In this document: one piece after another, positions 4,591 to 25,937 of the stretch
Layout: each line of letters begins with the position of its first letter
Numbering within the stretch: position 1 is the first letter of the stretch
Position numbers and translations under genes: made by a program
Virus record (IMG/VR): IMGVR_UViG_3300033145_001819
Location: 1-26,545 of that record
Origin: a virus
DNA: 26,545 bases
Reading direction: 5' to 3' (one strand)
The notes under the pieces: generated by a model
Told to the model about the DNA's origin: nothing
Database searches by the model: none
What the model saw: only the letters and a program-made list of their open reading frames with translations

Positions 4591-6576
4591 CTACCTCCCT
4601 GCGACAACGTAGCAATCGCAGCCGCCATGTAGTTGTGGGTGTCCAACCGCTCTGTAAGCCTTGAGCGGCTCCGTCTCCCCGTCCTCGGGATCCACTGTGT
4701 CACCGGCCTTGAGGAAGAATCCTTCACCTGCCACCACCCGGCCCTCCATCTTCCGGCAGAGCGGGCAAGTATCTCCCCTCGTCCTCCAGACCGTCTTGAA
4801 GCCGGCAGCCACGAAGACGGTCTTCGCGACCGCCGCTCCGAACTGCACTGACTCCCTGAACCCGATCTTCCCCGGCCGCTTCTGCTCCCACTCATCCAGG
4901 CGCTCGGTCAGCACGGCCTCGAGCTCGTCCGGATTCGCCTCTCGAATGAGCTCCTCCAGCTGGCCCCGAGAGGAGTCGACGTGCCGGACGGCCAGCGTGC
5001 GGGTGTAGGCCTCGACGAAGTTCTCCATCTCCTCCGTCATGCCACCCTCGCCGTTCACCTCCTCGGCGGCTGCCGCCTGAACGACCTCGGCGTAGGCCCT
5101 CAGCAACGGGAGCATCTGGCGCTGGATGTACTCGGGCAGGTCCTGGTAGATCTTGCTCAATCTCGATTCCAGGTCCGCTGCAGATCGAGTGCCCAGCGTC
5201 TCCTTGATCGCCCGCCTCAGGTCCTCTAGCTCGCGCTTCACGACGCGGCCACCCGCCGCGGTGAGCAGCTTTCGGTAGGTGAGCCGGTACCGGTTTCGCT
5301 GGCGGACGGAGCGCTGGCTCCGGAGCTCAAGGCCCGGGGCAGGGAGTAGCGCCCGGCCCTCTTCGCCAGGCCCGCCACCCGTCTCCAGGTCCATCCCCGC
5401 CTGGGAGAGCGGCATCATGTTGAGCTGCACGAACCGGCTGTTCGCGAACTCGCCCTCCTCAGGGTTCCGGTGCTCGATCTCGGCCCATTCGTTGGGGCTA
5501 AGCGAACCTCCCTGGAACTGCGTCATCAGGGCCTCGGATCGGCTCTTCGCGTCTCCTCTCATGAGACCGTCCAGGAGGAACTCGGCGAAGTAGGTGTCCC
5601 TCTCCGACTCGGGGAAGAGCTGGTAGAAGCCCTGCTCCCAGCGCACCAGCCAGGGGCGGATCGTCCCGACCGCGAAGTCGATCAGATCGTGCTCGACGTT
5701 GGAGTGCGTGGATCGGTCCAGTTCCCGCAGCTTGTGGGGCGCGAGGTTCAGCATCCTGGCAACCTCGGTGATTTGGAACTTCCGGGTCTCCAGGAACTGA
5801 GCCTCCTCCGATGTCATTCCCACGGATTGCCACTTGAGGTCCTGCTCGAGGAGAGCGGCGGAGTGAGCTTTGGCGGAGCCTGCGTGCGCCTTGTTCCAGG
5901 AGTCCTCGATGTTCTTCCTGGACTCTTTGTCCAGCTTCTTCGGCGTGGTGAGCACGCCGCCCGGGCGCGCATCGTTCTTGAAGAACCGGGCCCCATACTG
6001 CTCCGTCGCTCGAGCTAGGCCGAGCGCCTCGCACATAAGGGTAACCGGTGAGTAGCCGATGATGCCGTCCCCGGAGAGGCCCCGGACGTGGAGGATCTGA
6101 TCCTGCGTGAAGCGCCGATCCTCCTGCCCTCGCCGGCGAAGGTAGTACACGAGCTCGCCGGCCTCGACCTTGATCCGGATCCGGTCCGGATGGAGGGGAA
6201 TCAGCTGGATGATTCGGCCCAGGCTGTTCCGCACGATCTGTGCGATCGCGTTGCCCCGGAGCAAGAGGTGGCCCTGCATCATCTCGAAGAACTCGACCGC
6301 CGTCTGCCAGGGGTTGGGACGACGATGGAGCACAGGCCAGAGATGGTGCTCCGAGGCCGGCAGCTTCCCGCCAGCGTTCAATCGCCGGTAGACCTTGAGC
6401 GGTAGCGTGGCCACGGTCCCGGCGATGATCGACACCCCCGCCCAGACGGCCGAGATCCAGAGCGCGTTGTCGTGGGTGACCTCGACGCCGCTGCTGGGCG
6501 TTGGGTAGATCGGCCGAAACCAACGATCATCGTCAGGCGCCCACTGGCGCTTCTCCAAGCTTGTGAAGATCCCCAT
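4591..6576 (-). CDS. Portal protein (HK97 type) fused to a C-terminal MuF/SPP1 gp7-like head morphogenesis domain
   Basis: At 661 aa this is about 200 residues longer than a typical HK97 portal. Residues 1-400 carry the portal pattern: DNALWISAVWAGVSIIAGTVATLP (about 36-59), HHLWPVLHRRPNPWQTAVEFF (about 77-97), GNAIAQIVRN, and the motif HVRGLSGDGIIGYSPV near 163-178, then RFFKNDARPGGVL. From about 420 the sequence changes to a charged helical region, and the extreme C-terminus has the metal-binding-like motif of Mu F / SPP1 gp7 proteins: CPLC at 604-607, then GHPQLHGGCDC with His646, Cys653 and Cys655. There is no separate MuF gene nearby, which supports a true fusion. It overlaps the upstream small gene as TAATG. 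Confidence 0.9.
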   Translation of the reverse strand: MGIFTSLEKRQWAPDDDRWFRPIYPTPSSGVEVTHDNALWISAVWAGVSIIAGTVATLPLKVYRRLNAGGKLPASEHHLWPVLHRRPNPWQTAVEFFEMMQGHLLLRGNAIAQIVRNSLGRIIQLIPLHPDRIRIKVEAGELVYYLRRRGQEDRRFTQDQILHVRGLSGDGIIGYSPVTLMCEALGLARATEQYGARFFKNDARPGGVLTTPKKLDKESRKNIEDSWNKAHAGSAKAHSAALLEQDLKWQSVGMTSEEAQFLETRKFQITEVARMLNLAPHKLRELDRSTHSNVEHDLIDFAVGTIRPWLVRWEQGFYQLFPESERDTYFAEFLLDGLMRGDAKSRSEALMTQFQGGSLSPNEWAEIEHRNPEEGEFANSRFVQLNMMPLSQAGMDLETGGGPGEEGRALLPAPGLELRSQRSVRQRNRYRLTYRKLLTAAGGRVVKRELEDLRRAIKETLGTRSAADLESRLSKIYQDLPEYIQRQMLPLLRAYAEVVQAAAAEEVNGEGGMTEEMENFVEAYTRTLAVRHVDSSRGQLEELIREANPDELEAVLTERLDEWEQKRPGKIGFRESVQFGAAVAKTVFVAAGFKTVWRTRGDTCPLCRKMEGRVVAGEGFFLKAGDTVDPEDGETEPLKAYRAVGHPQLHGGCDCYVVAGR

Positions 6577-9574: not shown

Positions 9575-9767
9575 TGGCTGGCTCCCGCTCACGGGCAACC
9601 TCATGGAGGGCTCCGCAGCTGGAGCAGGGCACCACGTCGTGGCCATCCTCAGCTTCCCTGCTGTGGGTCACGATCCCGATCACCCGGACCGGTCCTCTGA
9701 GCTCAGCCACGAACCGGTTGCAGCGGCGCCCTGACTTGGCCCGGGCCTGGCAGCGGATCACAGCCAT
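9564..9767 (-). CDS. Small zinc-ribbon-like protein, unknown
   Basis: A 67-aa protein with Cys6 and Cys16 (CQARAKSGRRC) and a CSSC at 48-51, a four-cysteine set fit to bind one zinc. The ATG at 9767 has no clear ribosome site. A TTG three codons earlier is also open. It is the first gene after the 9785-9815 terminator and overlaps the HNH start by 11 nt, so it opens the late block. The family is not recognised. Confidence 0.6.
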   Translation of the reverse strand: MAVIRCQARAKSGRRCNRFVAELRGPVRVIGIVTHSREAEDGHDVVPCSSCGALHEVAREREPANAS

Positions 9768-9784
9768 GGGGCACAAAGACGAAA

Positions 9785-9815
9785 GGCCCGCGCCCCTCTG
9801 TAGGAGCTGCGGGCC
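9785..9815 (-). terminator. Strong intrinsic terminator between early and late blocks
   Basis: The minus-strand RNA forms GGCCCGC/GCGGGCC (7 bp), a bulged A, then GCUCC/GGGGC and a 6-nt loop, about 12 bp in all, followed by UUUCGUCUUU. It lies in the 110-nt gap (9768-9877) between the winged-helix gene and the first late gene, only 18 nt before that gene's ATG. Late transcription would need a promoter inside this short space, read-through or antitermination. A possible -35 box TTGACC occurs upstream of it, without a good -10. Confidence 0.8.
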
Positions 9816-9877
9816 ATAGAACGGGCCGTGATGTTCGGGTTTCCTAGAACGAAGCTAGCAGTCACGGTTTCTCATGG

Positions 9878-10147
9878 TCAAGGATCGTCCTCCTTCTCTG
9901 GTGCCAGCGGCGCATCAAGGACTTCGGCTAGTGCACGTCTTCCTTGGCTTGTCAGCCACGCCGTGCGGAGGCTCACGCCGTACTCGATCCAGCCCCGCTT
10001 AAAGAACCTCTCGTACTTGGCCTCCACTACTTTCGGAGGGAATCCCTCATCATAGAGCACACGATATGCCGGAAGGCCCCCATGCTCATCGTGTTCCTGG
10101 ATCAACGTCAGGAGGCGGATGTCTGGGATGTCTTTCGCCTGGACCAT
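9878..10147 (-). CDS. Winged-helix-like small protein, possible regulator
   Basis: An 89-aa protein from MVQAKDIPDIRLLTLIQEHD. The first half looks like a helical recognition unit (AYRVLYDEGFPPKVVEAKYERFFKRGWIEYG). The second has a short hairpin and SLRTAWLTSQGRRALAEVL, as in winged-helix proteins where a strand-turn-strand follows the recognition helix and ends in LTxxGRxAL. The ATG at 10147 has GGGGGGA upstream and overlaps the previous stop (TAATG). It is the last gene before the terminator, a place where late-gene activators are often found. DNA binding is inferred. Confidence 0.6.
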   Translation of the reverse strand: MVQAKDIPDIRLLTLIQEHDEHGGLPAYRVLYDEGFPPKVVEAKYERFFKRGWIEYGVSLRTAWLTSQGRRALAEVLDAPLAPEKEDDP

Positions 10148-23083: not shown

Positions 23084-23162
23084 ATGTTGCCGTTGGCTGA
23101 TTCGGGGCGTTTGCGTGCGCCATTTCTGTCCCTACCCGGACAATATTGTCAATTCGTTTGCG
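23068..23162. promoter_or_regulatory. Divergent switch region: triple CGTTTGCG repeats, 12-bp palindrome and -35 box
   Basis: CGTTTGCG occurs three times in the same direction at 23068-23075, 23108-23115 and 23155-23162. GACAATATTGTC (23139-23150) is a perfect 12-bp palindrome. A consensus TTGACA -35 box for leftward transcription (minus strand, 23152-23147) lies partly inside it, though no good -10 box was found at normal spacing. This 80-bp gap between the divergent RHH and repressor genes is the likely operator. Confidence 0.6.
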
Positions 23163-23163
23163 G

Positions 23164-23580
23164 ATGTCAAGAGTGTCGGAAAACGGTCGGAAACGTCAGG
23201 AATTTGAGGCTCGGATCAGGGACCGGGTAATTGAGTGGTGGACGGACGAGTCCCCCCAGCCCTCACTGGCTCATATCGCGGAACGCACCGGGGCAGGAGA
23301 GCGGACGGTCAGGCGATACCTCGACCCAGAAGACGGGACGAAGAAGATCCCGGCATGGTGGGTAGCCGAACTCTGTCGCGCCTTTGGGGTCAGCCCGGAG
23401 TGGATGTTCCTCAACCGGGGACCACGCGTTGCCATTGGCAGCGAAGTCACCGGCCTCGCATGTGAGACGATTACCAGACTATTACGAGAGGTGCGCGACC
23501 CTACTCACAGGCCCGCCGTGGTCTCCAGCCTTCTGGAAGAGATTCTCGACACACTAGACAGTCTTGATGTTGAAGAATGA
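23164..23580 (+). CDS. Phage repressor, small XRE-type HTH
   Basis: A 138-aa protein. The N-terminal helix (RKRQEFEARIRDRVIEWW) is followed by a five-helix HTH: SLAHIAERTGAGERTVRRYLD (about 35-55) with recognition helix ERTVRRYL, then IPAWWVAELCRAFGVSPEWMFLNRG (about 62-86), the usual XRE end. The C-terminal helix (about 100-138) may dimerise. There is no S24 peptidase-type cleavage domain, so it is not LexA-like. The ATG at 23164 is preferred to an upstream TTG. It is divergent from the leftward early operon, which it probably represses. The 3' 80 nt overlap a convergent minus-strand gene. Confidence 0.8.
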   Translation: MSRVSENGRKRQEFEARIRDRVIEWWTDESPQPSLAHIAERTGAGERTVRRYLDPEDGTKKIPAWWVAELCRAFGVSPEWMFLNRGPRVAIGSEVTGLACETITRLLREVRDPTHRPAVVSSLLEEILDTLDSLDVEE

Positions 23581-23801: not shown

Positions 23802-24773
23802 ATGGGCGAGAGAACAGACCGGCTCAAGGAGTTCCTCCTCCTTGCGCTGGCATGGCTCTTCGGTGTCTTCCTCCTGGTGATCGCGATCACGATCGCCTTC
23901 ACGTATCCACGCGCAGCAATCCCACCCGTGCTAATGAGTGCGCTGGTTCTTCCACCGGTTCGTACCTGGGTACACGCACGCACAGGATGGAAGCTTCCCG
24001 GCCAGATCAAAGTCGGTCTTTTCATAGGCCTCGTGGTTGGGTGGGGCATGCTCATTGTCTATTCCGAAGTCGCGCTGGAAGAGGCACGGGTGGCCGAGGA
24101 GCAGGCCGAGGCGGCAGGGAGAGAAGCTGAGCAGCAGGAGGCACTGCGTCAGGAGTTCCTTGAGGCCCGAGACTCCCTCCTGCGGTTTGTCAGGACCGCT
24201 ATCTCAGAAGGGGATCTTCAGTCAGCCGTTCGGACCTCAGGGGAGTACCTCTCCGTGGGTGATGAAGAGATGGCCGCCCTTCACGAGGAGGCACAAGCAG
24301 CCCGGCTGGCCCTTCAGGACAAGGAGTTGGAGCAGGAGATCCTTACACGTCTCAGGACCATCCCTGCAAGCAACTGGGATCAGAATCGCAGTCTCTATAG
24401 TCGTCTCATCCAATTGAATCCCAATGAGCCCAGATACAAGGAGAGATTCGACCGCTACGACGCACTTATAAAACGACGGGAAGAGCAGCGAAGAGCCCGT
24501 CTGGCTGCCTTCGGTGATCCACCGGTGAAGAGTGCCTGGGATGGGACATACCGTGTGGTGAAGGAGTACCTGCGGGGGGTCATGAATGACCCGGGGAGCC
24601 TGGAGATGGATGGCTGCACCGACGTGCGCTACGTGGACCGCGGGTGGCTCGTCGGATGTGACTACCGTGGTCGGAACGCGTTTGGCGGGATGGTCCGGCA
24701 GTCGAACTGGTTCATCATCGTCCACGGCCGCGTCATCGCAATGGAAGAGTCATCGGCCTATACGATCAGATAG
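23802..24773 (+). CDS. Membrane protein with coiled coil and C-terminal globular domain
   Basis: A 323-aa protein. AAGGAG lies 7 nt before the ATG. Hydrophobic spans are at about 11-35, 38-52 (weaker) and 71-90. A long Glu/Gln/Arg coiled coil covers about 90-215. The C-terminal domain (about 243-318) has the conserved-looking series VVKEYLRGVMNDPGSLEMDG, RGWLVGCDYRGRNAFGG and SNWFIIVHGRVI, which resembles a small domain found at the end of many unrelated bacterial membrane proteins. It sits between repressor and DUF3800 on the lysogenic strand. A prophage-expressed host-protective or exclusion role is inferred, not shown. Confidence 0.7.
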   Translation: MGERTDRLKEFLLLALAWLFGVFLLVIAITIAFTYPRAAIPPVLMSALVLPPVRTWVHARTGWKLPGQIKVGLFIGLVVGWGMLIVYSEVALEEARVAEEQAEAAGREAEQQEALRQEFLEARDSLLRFVRTAISEGDLQSAVRTSGEYLSVGDEEMAALHEEAQAARLALQDKELEQEILTRLRTIPASNWDQNRSLYSRLIQLNPNEPRYKERFDRYDALIKRREEQRRARLAAFGDPPVKSAWDGTYRVVKEYLRGVMNDPGSLEMDGCTDVRYVDRGWLVGCDYRGRNAFGGMVRQSNWFIIVHGRVIAMEESSAYTIR

Positions 24774-24781
24774 GCTGAAAC

Positions 24782-24844
24782 TCACGCTCTACGGCCCGAC
24801 CGTGGCGATGCCGGATCTACAGTGTTCATGAGAGACGAGTGTGA
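24782..24844 (+). promoter_or_regulatory. Base-paired leader immediately before the DUF3800 start
   Basis: TCACGCTC (24782-24789) can pair with GAGTGTGA (24837-24844) through 8 bp including one wobble, ending 1 nt before the ATG. Inside are ACGG/CCGT around CCCGA and GGC/GCC around GAT. The closing stem covers the place where a ribosome site would be. No good Shine-Dalgarno sequence is visible. Confidence 0.4.
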
Positions 24845-24845
24845 C

Positions 24846-25613
24846 ATGGCTGACAAAGAAGAGAAGCTCGGTCCGACCGAGATTGCCTACATCGACGAGA
24901 GCTACGACACAGACAAGTTCTGCATGAGTACCCTGATTCTATCGACTCACCAGTGGCGGGAGTGCTTCGAGATCGTGAAGGAGTGGCGCCGGGAGCTCCG
25001 CAAGGAGCACGGCATCTTCACGAACAAGGAGTTCCATGCAACGAAGTTCGTGAGCGGACGCGGTCGCCTCGGTCACCGAGACGTGCCGAAGGCGCTACGG
25101 GCACAGATCTTTCTCGATGCCATGGATCTCATCGGCAGTTTGCCGGGAGCTGCAATCATCAGCGGAGCATGGGATGTGGCGAGCCTGGACGACCCCAATG
25201 CCCATGCCTTCCAGCGGATCCAGGAGCGGTTGCAGCGTCGATGCACTGGTCAGGCTGGGTACATCGTCACAATTGCCGATGAGGGACGCGCTACTGAGCT
25301 CCTCCGTGTCTCTCGCCGAAGCAAGGTCTACAACCCAGTGGGGAGCATGTTTGGAATGTGGGGAGACGGATCCGTCTCCAAGAACATCCCAAATGAGCGA
25401 CTCATCGAGGATCCGGTGTTCCGCAACTCGGCCCAGTCCTACTTCCTCCAGCTCGTCGATTTCGTGGCCTTCGCTCTGCTGAAGAGCGAGGTGACGCCGA
25501 CTCCACTTGTCACGAAGTACGGACTCCACGAGGCGTATGATCGTCTAGAGCCGGTCTGTGTGAAGGTGGCCACAGGGAGAGATCCCCGTAAACTCGGCAT
25601 CATTCGCACATAG
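24846..25613 (+). CDS. DUF3800 protein, RNase H-like fold
   Basis: A 255-aa protein. The family signatures are clear: AYIDESYD (Asp17, Glu18), NKEFHATKFVSGRGRLG (Glu62, His64), TIADEGR (Asp145, Glu146) and SAQSYFLQLVDFVAFALLK (Asp205), a full set of acidic residues for a two-metal nuclease site. DUF3800 proteins are widespread on mobile elements. Their role is unproven, with defence or nucleic-acid cleavage suspected. Start 24846 is chosen over ATG 24828 and GTG 24822 because the family usually starts shortly before the AYIDES strand. It follows the membrane gene by 72 nt on the lysogenic strand and is closed by a hairpin. Confidence 0.85.
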   Translation: MADKEEKLGPTEIAYIDESYDTDKFCMSTLILSTHQWRECFEIVKEWRRELRKEHGIFTNKEFHATKFVSGRGRLGHRDVPKALRAQIFLDAMDLIGSLPGAAIISGAWDVASLDDPNAHAFQRIQERLQRRCTGQAGYIVTIADEGRATELLRVSRRSKVYNPVGSMFGMWGDGSVSKNIPNERLIEDPVFRNSAQSYFLQLVDFVAFALLKSEVTPTPLVTKYGLHEAYDRLEPVCVKVATGRDPRKLGIIRT

Positions 25614-25623
25614 ACACAACGAA

Positions 25624-25655
25624 GCCGCCCCCCGGGACGACTTCCGGGAGGCGGC
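25624..25655. terminator. Strong hairpin ending the plus-strand module (possibly bidirectional)
   Basis: GCCGCC pairs with GGCGGC, then after one C-A mismatch CCCGG pairs with CCGGG around a short loop, about 11 bp. On the plus strand it follows the DUF3800 stop by 10 nt without a T-run. On the minus strand it is followed by TTCGTTGTGT, so it may act better on leftward transcripts coming from the late operon. Confidence 0.65.
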
Positions 25656-25937
25656 GTGAGCAGAACCGAGATCCTGGCACAGTTGTCAGGCTCAGTCCCG
25701 CAGTGGCAGAATAACCCGAAGTTATCCCGAATGCAAGAAAAACCTTGCGGATCTTTCACCGGGCTAGATCAGTAGGCTACCAGCTTTCGACCGGACACCT
25801 CTGGTCCCATCCAGCCATCCCGAAGCCCAGCGGCCAGGAGTATTCTCGGTAATATTTTCGTGGCCGTTTTCCGTTTTACGTAAGGCGATAAAATGGGACT
25901 CTACATTTGGGACGACTGCTACTTCATTCACGGGAGA
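25656..25937. other. Non-coding gap with weak leftward promoter-like boxes and a small hairpin
   Basis: This is the remainder of the 324-nt gene-free stretch (25614-25937). It holds a minus-strand TTGCAT (25736-25731) and TATTCT (25713-25708) spaced 17 bp, a tandem TTCGGG repeat between them, and a GCAAG/CTTGC hairpin near 25733-25747. It has no convincing gene; a plus-strand frame from 25893 is antisense to the next gene. Confidence 0.3.

What the first reader, a model, noticed from the sequence alone, without database searches (positions are those of the whole stretch)
23802..25655. Lysogenic-strand cassette: membrane/coiled-coil protein plus DUF3800 with intact acidic site
These are the only well-supported plus-strand genes besides the repressor and lie where prophages carry defence or exclusion genes. 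The DUF3800 protein keeps Asp17/Glu18, Glu62/His64, Asp145/Glu146 and Asp205, enough for a two-metal nuclease. Its partner has two to three membrane spans, a long coiled coil and a C-terminal globular domain. A membrane sensor plus nuclease pair would be a plausible anti-phage system; this pairing is not one I know to be described.
Basis: partly seen in the sequence, partly recalled or inferred. Interest (0 to 1): 0.68.

Follow-up and report, generated by a model that had tools for sequence, protein, structure and literature searches.

The report
Prophage nuclease gene with RNA partner
Next to its master repressor this temperate phage carries a membrane protein gene and a nuclease gene that are not a conserved pair; the nuclease gene instead travels with a repressor gene and with a small folded RNA-like element just after it, which suggests an RNA-protein module rather than a membrane-sensor defence system.

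Summary
Both genes are real. ORF A (23802-24773) has three predicted TM helices, a coiled coil, a TPR-like region and a C-terminal alpha/beta domain. ORF B (24846-25613) is a DUF3800 RNase H-fold protein with D17, E62, D145 and D205 invariant in relatives. The proposed sensor-nuclease pairing is not supported: none of 57 viral records with A-type proteins carries DUF3800, no DUF3800 record carries A nearby, and A's large domain is predicted outside the cytoplasm.

What recurs with B is different. In its five closest phage relatives it lies behind a repressor-type gene on the same strand, even where repressors are unrelated. Its 3' flank holds a conserved RNA-like element: 16 aligned flanks, 12 of 13 pairs with double-sided changes, covariation 0.53 against 0.17 shuffled. 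The window has a diverged copy at 25660-25701 (20/23 consensus; best of 3000 random flanks 18), though the covariance model gives it only 5.6 bits. No Rfam model matched. A pattern search found a further phage with the element, a divergent DUF3800 and a CI repressor. DUF3800-RNA association is already known; this looks like a new variant. Function is untested.

The parts
23146..23580 (+). putative lysogeny repressor (144 aa, HTH)
   Evidence: weak HTH_31 (E=0.007, below cut-off) and PHROG repressor matches; 30% identity over 74 aa to the HTH protein upstream of DUF3800 in L143
23802..24773 (+). ORF A: three-TM, coiled-coil, TPR-like protein with C-terminal alpha/beta domain predicted outside the cytoplasm
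24846..25613 (+). ORF B: DUF3800 RNase H-fold protein (255 aa; GTG start at 24822 possible)
25624..25655 (.). P1: GC-rich hairpin 10 nt after the DUF3800 stop
   Evidence: a hairpin at this place also follows most DUF3800 relatives
25660..25701 (+). diverged copy of the DUF3800 3' RNA-like element: P2 25660-25666/25695-25701 (5 of 7 pairs, two A-C), P3 25673-25679/25684-25690 (7 pairs)
   Evidence: weak in model R1 (5.6 bits with filters off; not found with default filters)

Best explanation
The region is a lysogeny operon: repressor, then two independent accessory genes. ORF B with the folded RNA-like element in its 3' flank is a mobile nuclease-RNA module that temperate phages keep behind the repressor. 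Shown by computation: RNase H-like fold and conserved acidic residues, recurrent repressor-DUF3800 order, and a covarying 3' element present with very different DUF3800 proteins. Inferred: the element is transcribed with the gene and binds its DUF3800 protein; it holds or directs the nuclease while the prophage is stable, and the nuclease acts on nucleic acid when another phage enters or the prophage is lost, giving exclusion or addiction. ORF A is separate: a membrane-anchored protein facing the cell exterior or periplasm, most plausibly a superinfection-exclusion protein.
For: B: model pLDDT 83; best structural matches are RNase HII/H2/H3 (1eke Z 10.5, 155 aligned, 3.2 A; the top 19 rows are all of this class). 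Repressor neighbour: S24 or HTH proteins upstream on the same strand in all five closest relatives, with a lipoprotein gene between in L141, and a gene annotated as immunity repressor overlapping DUF3800 in Gordonia phage WinkNick; L139 and L140 share a 100% identical DUF3800 behind repressors without detectable similarity, their DNA identity starting at the repressor end. RNA element: 16 aligned 3' flanks from phages, chromosomes and a plasmid; 76.9% of cells paired (slid controls 25-38%), covariation 0.528 against 0.166 +/- 0.029, 0 of 500 shuffles. Pattern search of IMG/VR found L179: a divergent DUF3800 (E=4e-17) between an S24 repressor and the element. Window copy 20/23 against a maximum of 18 in 3000 random flanks and 17 elsewhere in the window. 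A: no DUF3800 partner; positive charge in the TM2-TM3 loop across the family and before the TM in single-TM members; a relative of its C-terminal domain in a Gordonia phage lipoprotein.
Against: No expression, binding or phage-plating data. In the window ORF A lies between repressor and B. The window RNA copy lacks the CUAC loop (CGAG instead) and is not found by the model built from relatives at default settings. The 3' element was not recognised in 9 of 27 distinct DUF3800 flanks inspected. Element boundaries were anchored by eye, so the covariation counts lean towards that structure. The element could also be a terminator or a recombination boundary: L139 and L179 share it with the phage backbone while the DUF3800 differs. 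Structural matches of A's C-terminal domain (3ub1 Z 7.2, 7pkw Z 6.4) are in the range that can be a common arrangement.
Confidence: 0.5

Rival explanations
1. A and B form one membrane-sensor plus nuclease anti-phage system, similar in idea to SNIPE, which cuts phage DNA at the membrane during injection.
For: Adjacent, same strand, 72-nt gap, lysogenic side, lower GC3 than the core. Membrane-located nuclease defence exists (SNIPE, PMC13190303). In L141 and L149 an unrelated lipoprotein or secreted protein also lies between repressor and DUF3800.
Against: No co-occurrence in relatives; A's soluble part predicted outside the cytoplasm; no PADLOC match.
Confidence: 0.08
2. B is an ordinary stand-alone lysogeny nuclease and the 3' element is only a transcription terminator or transcript-stability structure.
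For: P1 is a terminator-like hairpin directly after the stop; terminators often follow the last gene of an operon.
Against: P1 lacks a U-run on the + strand. P2/P3 has conserved loop sequences and covarying stems, unlike generic terminators, and strong model hits in 385 genomes lay only behind DUF3800 genes, although those three were training loci.
Confidence: 0.25
3. The 3' element is a DNA-level recombination or cargo-exchange boundary behind the repressor, and DUF3800 genes are simply the cargo.
For: L139, L140 and L179 share DNA around the element while repressors or the DUF3800 gene differ.
Against: All cargo found is DUF3800, including chromosomal, plasmid and Gordonia/Rhodococcus loci; stems change by compensation rather than staying identical.
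Confidence: 0.1

Closest known systems
DUF3800 (Pfam PF12686), including DUF3800 proteins associated with Cas12a2, type V-A2 and VI-F CRISPR loci (PMC10910872, PMC12669027)
   Same: RNase H fold with conserved acidic residues; family match E=1e-13
   Different: stand-alone phage protein behind a repressor, without CRISPR or TPR fusion
DUF3800-associated RNA motifs (Rfam DUF3800-I and others)
   Same: conserved structured RNA next to DUF3800 genes; the association is stated in PMC10910872
   Different: no Rfam model matched the window or relatives; how the known motifs lie relative to their genes could not be compared, since RF02969 hit nothing in 349 genomes
Superinfection-exclusion membrane proteins such as P22 SieA (PMC10883804)
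   Same: A is a membrane protein encoded on the lysogenic strand of a temperate phage
   Different: no sequence relation tested or shown; A has coiled-coil, TPR-like and C-terminal alpha/beta parts
PHROG 3403 / Vibrio phage VHML ORF47
   Same: the C-terminal domain (WDG..MNDP.S..RGKNAFGG) is shared
   Different: unknown function; VHML ORF47 is shorter and aligned only over the C-terminal part

Membership tests
DUF3800 (PF12686) | profile match over most of the domain | tested here: met
   52.8 bits against cut-off 21, profile positions 1-147 of 149
DUF3800 (PF12686) | conserved acidic residues of an RNase H-type site | tested here: met
   D17, E62, D145, D205 invariant
DUF3800 (PF12686) | nuclease activity | not testable with these tools
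   needs an enzyme assay
Rfam DUF3800 RNA motifs | match to a curated covariance model | tested here: not met
   none at gathering; no DUF3800 model up to E=10 on the window and L165 flanks
Rfam DUF3800 RNA motifs | structured RNA associated with a DUF3800 gene | tested here: met
   16 aligned flanks with covariation; the window copy itself is weak
Two-gene membrane-sensor plus nuclease system | conserved adjacency of both genes | tested here: not met
Known anti-phage systems (PADLOC-DB 2.0.0) | profile match of either protein | tested here: not met
Superinfection-exclusion membrane protein | membrane protein expressed from the prophage | tested here: inconclusive
   location and TM prediction fit; expression not known
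Superinfection-exclusion membrane protein | blocks infection by other phages | not testable with these tools
   needs plating assays

The most novel reading that the evidence does not exclude
A phage-borne RNA-protein module in which a DUF3800 RNase H-fold nuclease is paired with its own 3'-encoded structured RNA, of a class not covered by Rfam, and kept behind unrelated repressors in phages of distant hosts as a lysogen-expressed exclusion or addiction device.
Probability: 0.35. Interest if true: 0.8.

Novelty: new variant of a known kind. Interest (0 to 1): 0.55.

Why it matters
DUF3800 proteins are widespread, turn up next to CRISPR effectors and putative non-coding RNAs, and have no established function. 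A compact phage version with a defined, covarying 3' element and a recurrent place behind the repressor gives a concrete RNA to test for binding and a concrete phenotype (exclusion or prophage maintenance) to look for. It also shows that gene adjacency in a lysogeny operon alone does not make a two-gene defence system.

Tried and rejected
Single-sequence searches of viral contigs with A, B and the RDF-like gene found no relatives; megablast against phages found none. PADLOC: none. NCBIfam: none for A or B. Rfam weak hits (mir-2290, sR2, sR084) are far below their cut-offs and rejected as chance. Four weak genome hits of the RNA model (22-24 bits) have no DUF3800 nearby and are taken as chance. 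L180 and L183 pattern matches lie inside the same coding gene and are chance. The window's only default-filter model hit (6087-6126, - strand) lies in the portal gene and is taken as chance. WinkNick has both a DUF3800 and an A-type C-terminal domain, but about 22 kb apart, the latter in a lipoprotein gene next to the tape measure gene.

Full report
Observation. They score as coding with the phage's own codon usage and have lower GC3 than core genes. The window is a 26.5-kb IMG/VR virus record with terminase, portal, major head protein, integrase and RDF-like genes on the minus strand. Its host is not known: the terminase is about 45% identical to phages of several phyla.

ORF B. Pfam DUF3800 matches residues 13-212. 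In two alignments, one with 9 actinobacterial/phage relatives and one with 12 IMG/VR relatives, D17, E62, D145 and D205 are invariant, position 18 is E or D, H64 is common, and E146 is not conserved. The AlphaFold2 model (pLDDT 83) aligns best with RNase HII, H2 and H3 (1eke Z 10.5; 19 leading rows of that class), in line with published descriptions of DUF3800 as RNase H fold (PMC10910872; PMC12669027). Activity is not shown.

ORF A. Genome and viral scans with a profile gave 63 and 57 loci. Most share only the C-terminal domain; about two dozen match more of the length, in proteobacteria, Bacteroidota and phages. The model (pLDDT 94.5, 28 sequences) shows helices 2-61, a long helix 67-121, TPR-like helices to 237 and an alpha/beta domain 251-316; TPR proteins match by sequence and weakly by structure. 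In three-TM members the loop between TM2 and TM3 carries 1-6 K/R (mostly 3-6), while the TM1-TM2 loop carries 0-1; single-TM zinc-ribbon members carry 6-10 before the TM and 1-3 after. This predicts the C-terminal part outside the cytoplasm. Two cysteines (C272, C286) recur in L012 and L016, and a related domain occurs in a Gordonia phage lipoprotein. A role in superinfection exclusion is inference by analogy with proteins such as P22 SieA (PMC10883804).

Pairing. DUF3800 was searched in 81 records or genomes carrying A-type proteins: none of 57 viral contigs, one phage record and two plasmid records had it, and 2 of 21 bacterial genomes had it away from the A locus (no shared sequence between those places). 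A-type proteins were searched in 22 DUF3800 records: one match, WinkNick, about 22 kb away. Pseudomonas plasmids pair A with another hypothetical protein instead. The pairing in the window is therefore most simply co-residence in a lysogeny operon; A-type genes also follow HTH-like genes in L016, L029, L073, L081 and L083 (L016 has no Pfam match and is judged by eye).

Repressor association. In the five closest relatives of B (38-41% identity) an S24 or HTH protein lies upstream on the same strand. In Gordonia phage WinkNick the gene annotated as immunity repressor overlaps DUF3800 by four bases. L139 and L140 have identical DUF3800 proteins but repressors without detectable similarity, and their DNA identity begins at the repressor end. 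Chromosomal relatives (L165-L169) do not have this arrangement, nor do all phage relatives (L145, L148, L151).

RNA-like element. Comparing L139 with relatives showed a segment downstream of the DUF3800 stop that is more conserved (76-92%) than the coding DNA (67-69%). Alignment of 3' flanks showed, after a hairpin P1, a stem P2 enclosing a CUAC-type loop, hairpin P3 and a UUCA-type loop. On 16 flanks, 12 of 13 pairs have double-sided changes; 76.9% of cells pair against 25-38% for slid versions; covariation is 0.528 against 0.166 +/- 0.029. These flanks come from IMG/VR contigs, Gordonia and Rhodococcus phages, a Rhodococcus plasmid and chromosomes. It was not recognised in L146, L167, L169, L132 and L134-L138. 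A covariance model from 15 flanks without the window, searched in 385 genomes, gave three strong hits, all behind DUF3800 but all training loci, and four weak hits without DUF3800. The independent test is the DNA pattern scan: of three contigs not seen before, L179 has the element right after a divergent DUF3800 (243 aa, E=4e-17), itself right after an S24 repressor; L180 and L183 are chance. L179 shares DNA around the element with L139, so it is not fully independent by descent.

Window copy. The window has GCAGAAC-CGAGAU-P3-CUCA-GUCCCGC at 25660-25701. Against the consensus of L139, L141, L143 and L144 it scores 20 of 23; the best of 3000 Markov flanks is 18 and the next best place in the window 17. 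The model built from relatives does not find it at default settings and gives it 5.6 bits, best of the stretch, with filters off. I regard it as a probable, diverged member. Two of its seven P2 pairs are A-C, as in L139 and L141.

Known or new. The literature already links DUF3800 to putative ncRNAs (PMC10910872), and Rfam holds DUF3800 motifs (PMC11701678). None of them matched here. So this is best called a new variant of a known kind. The mechanism (RNA restrains or directs the nuclease; exclusion or addiction in lysogens) is inference.

Noticed in passing
L139, L140, L179: Identical DUF3800 behind unrelated repressors, and an identical 3' element behind two very different DUF3800 proteins, indicate module exchange at the repressor 3' end.
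   Followed up: partly
L170:424-759 (WinkNick 9720-10058, - strand): Small lipoprotein gene between tail assembly chaperone and tape measure genes carries a relative of the C-terminal domain of ORF A.
   Followed up: partly
L003, L004, L005: Pseudomonas plasmids pair the A-type protein with another conserved hypothetical protein (306-331 aa) directly upstream.
   Followed up: partly
L167:3985-4993: A chromosomal DUF3800 gene lies directly behind a small ORF that looks Cas2-like by eye.
   Followed up: no
window 25600-25900: The whole non-coding stretch after ORF B folds somewhat better than shuffled sequence (z -2.0); no Rfam match.
   Followed up: partly
L140:4078-4158: Rfam Proteo-phage-1 RNA in a DUF3800-carrying phage contig.
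   Followed up: no
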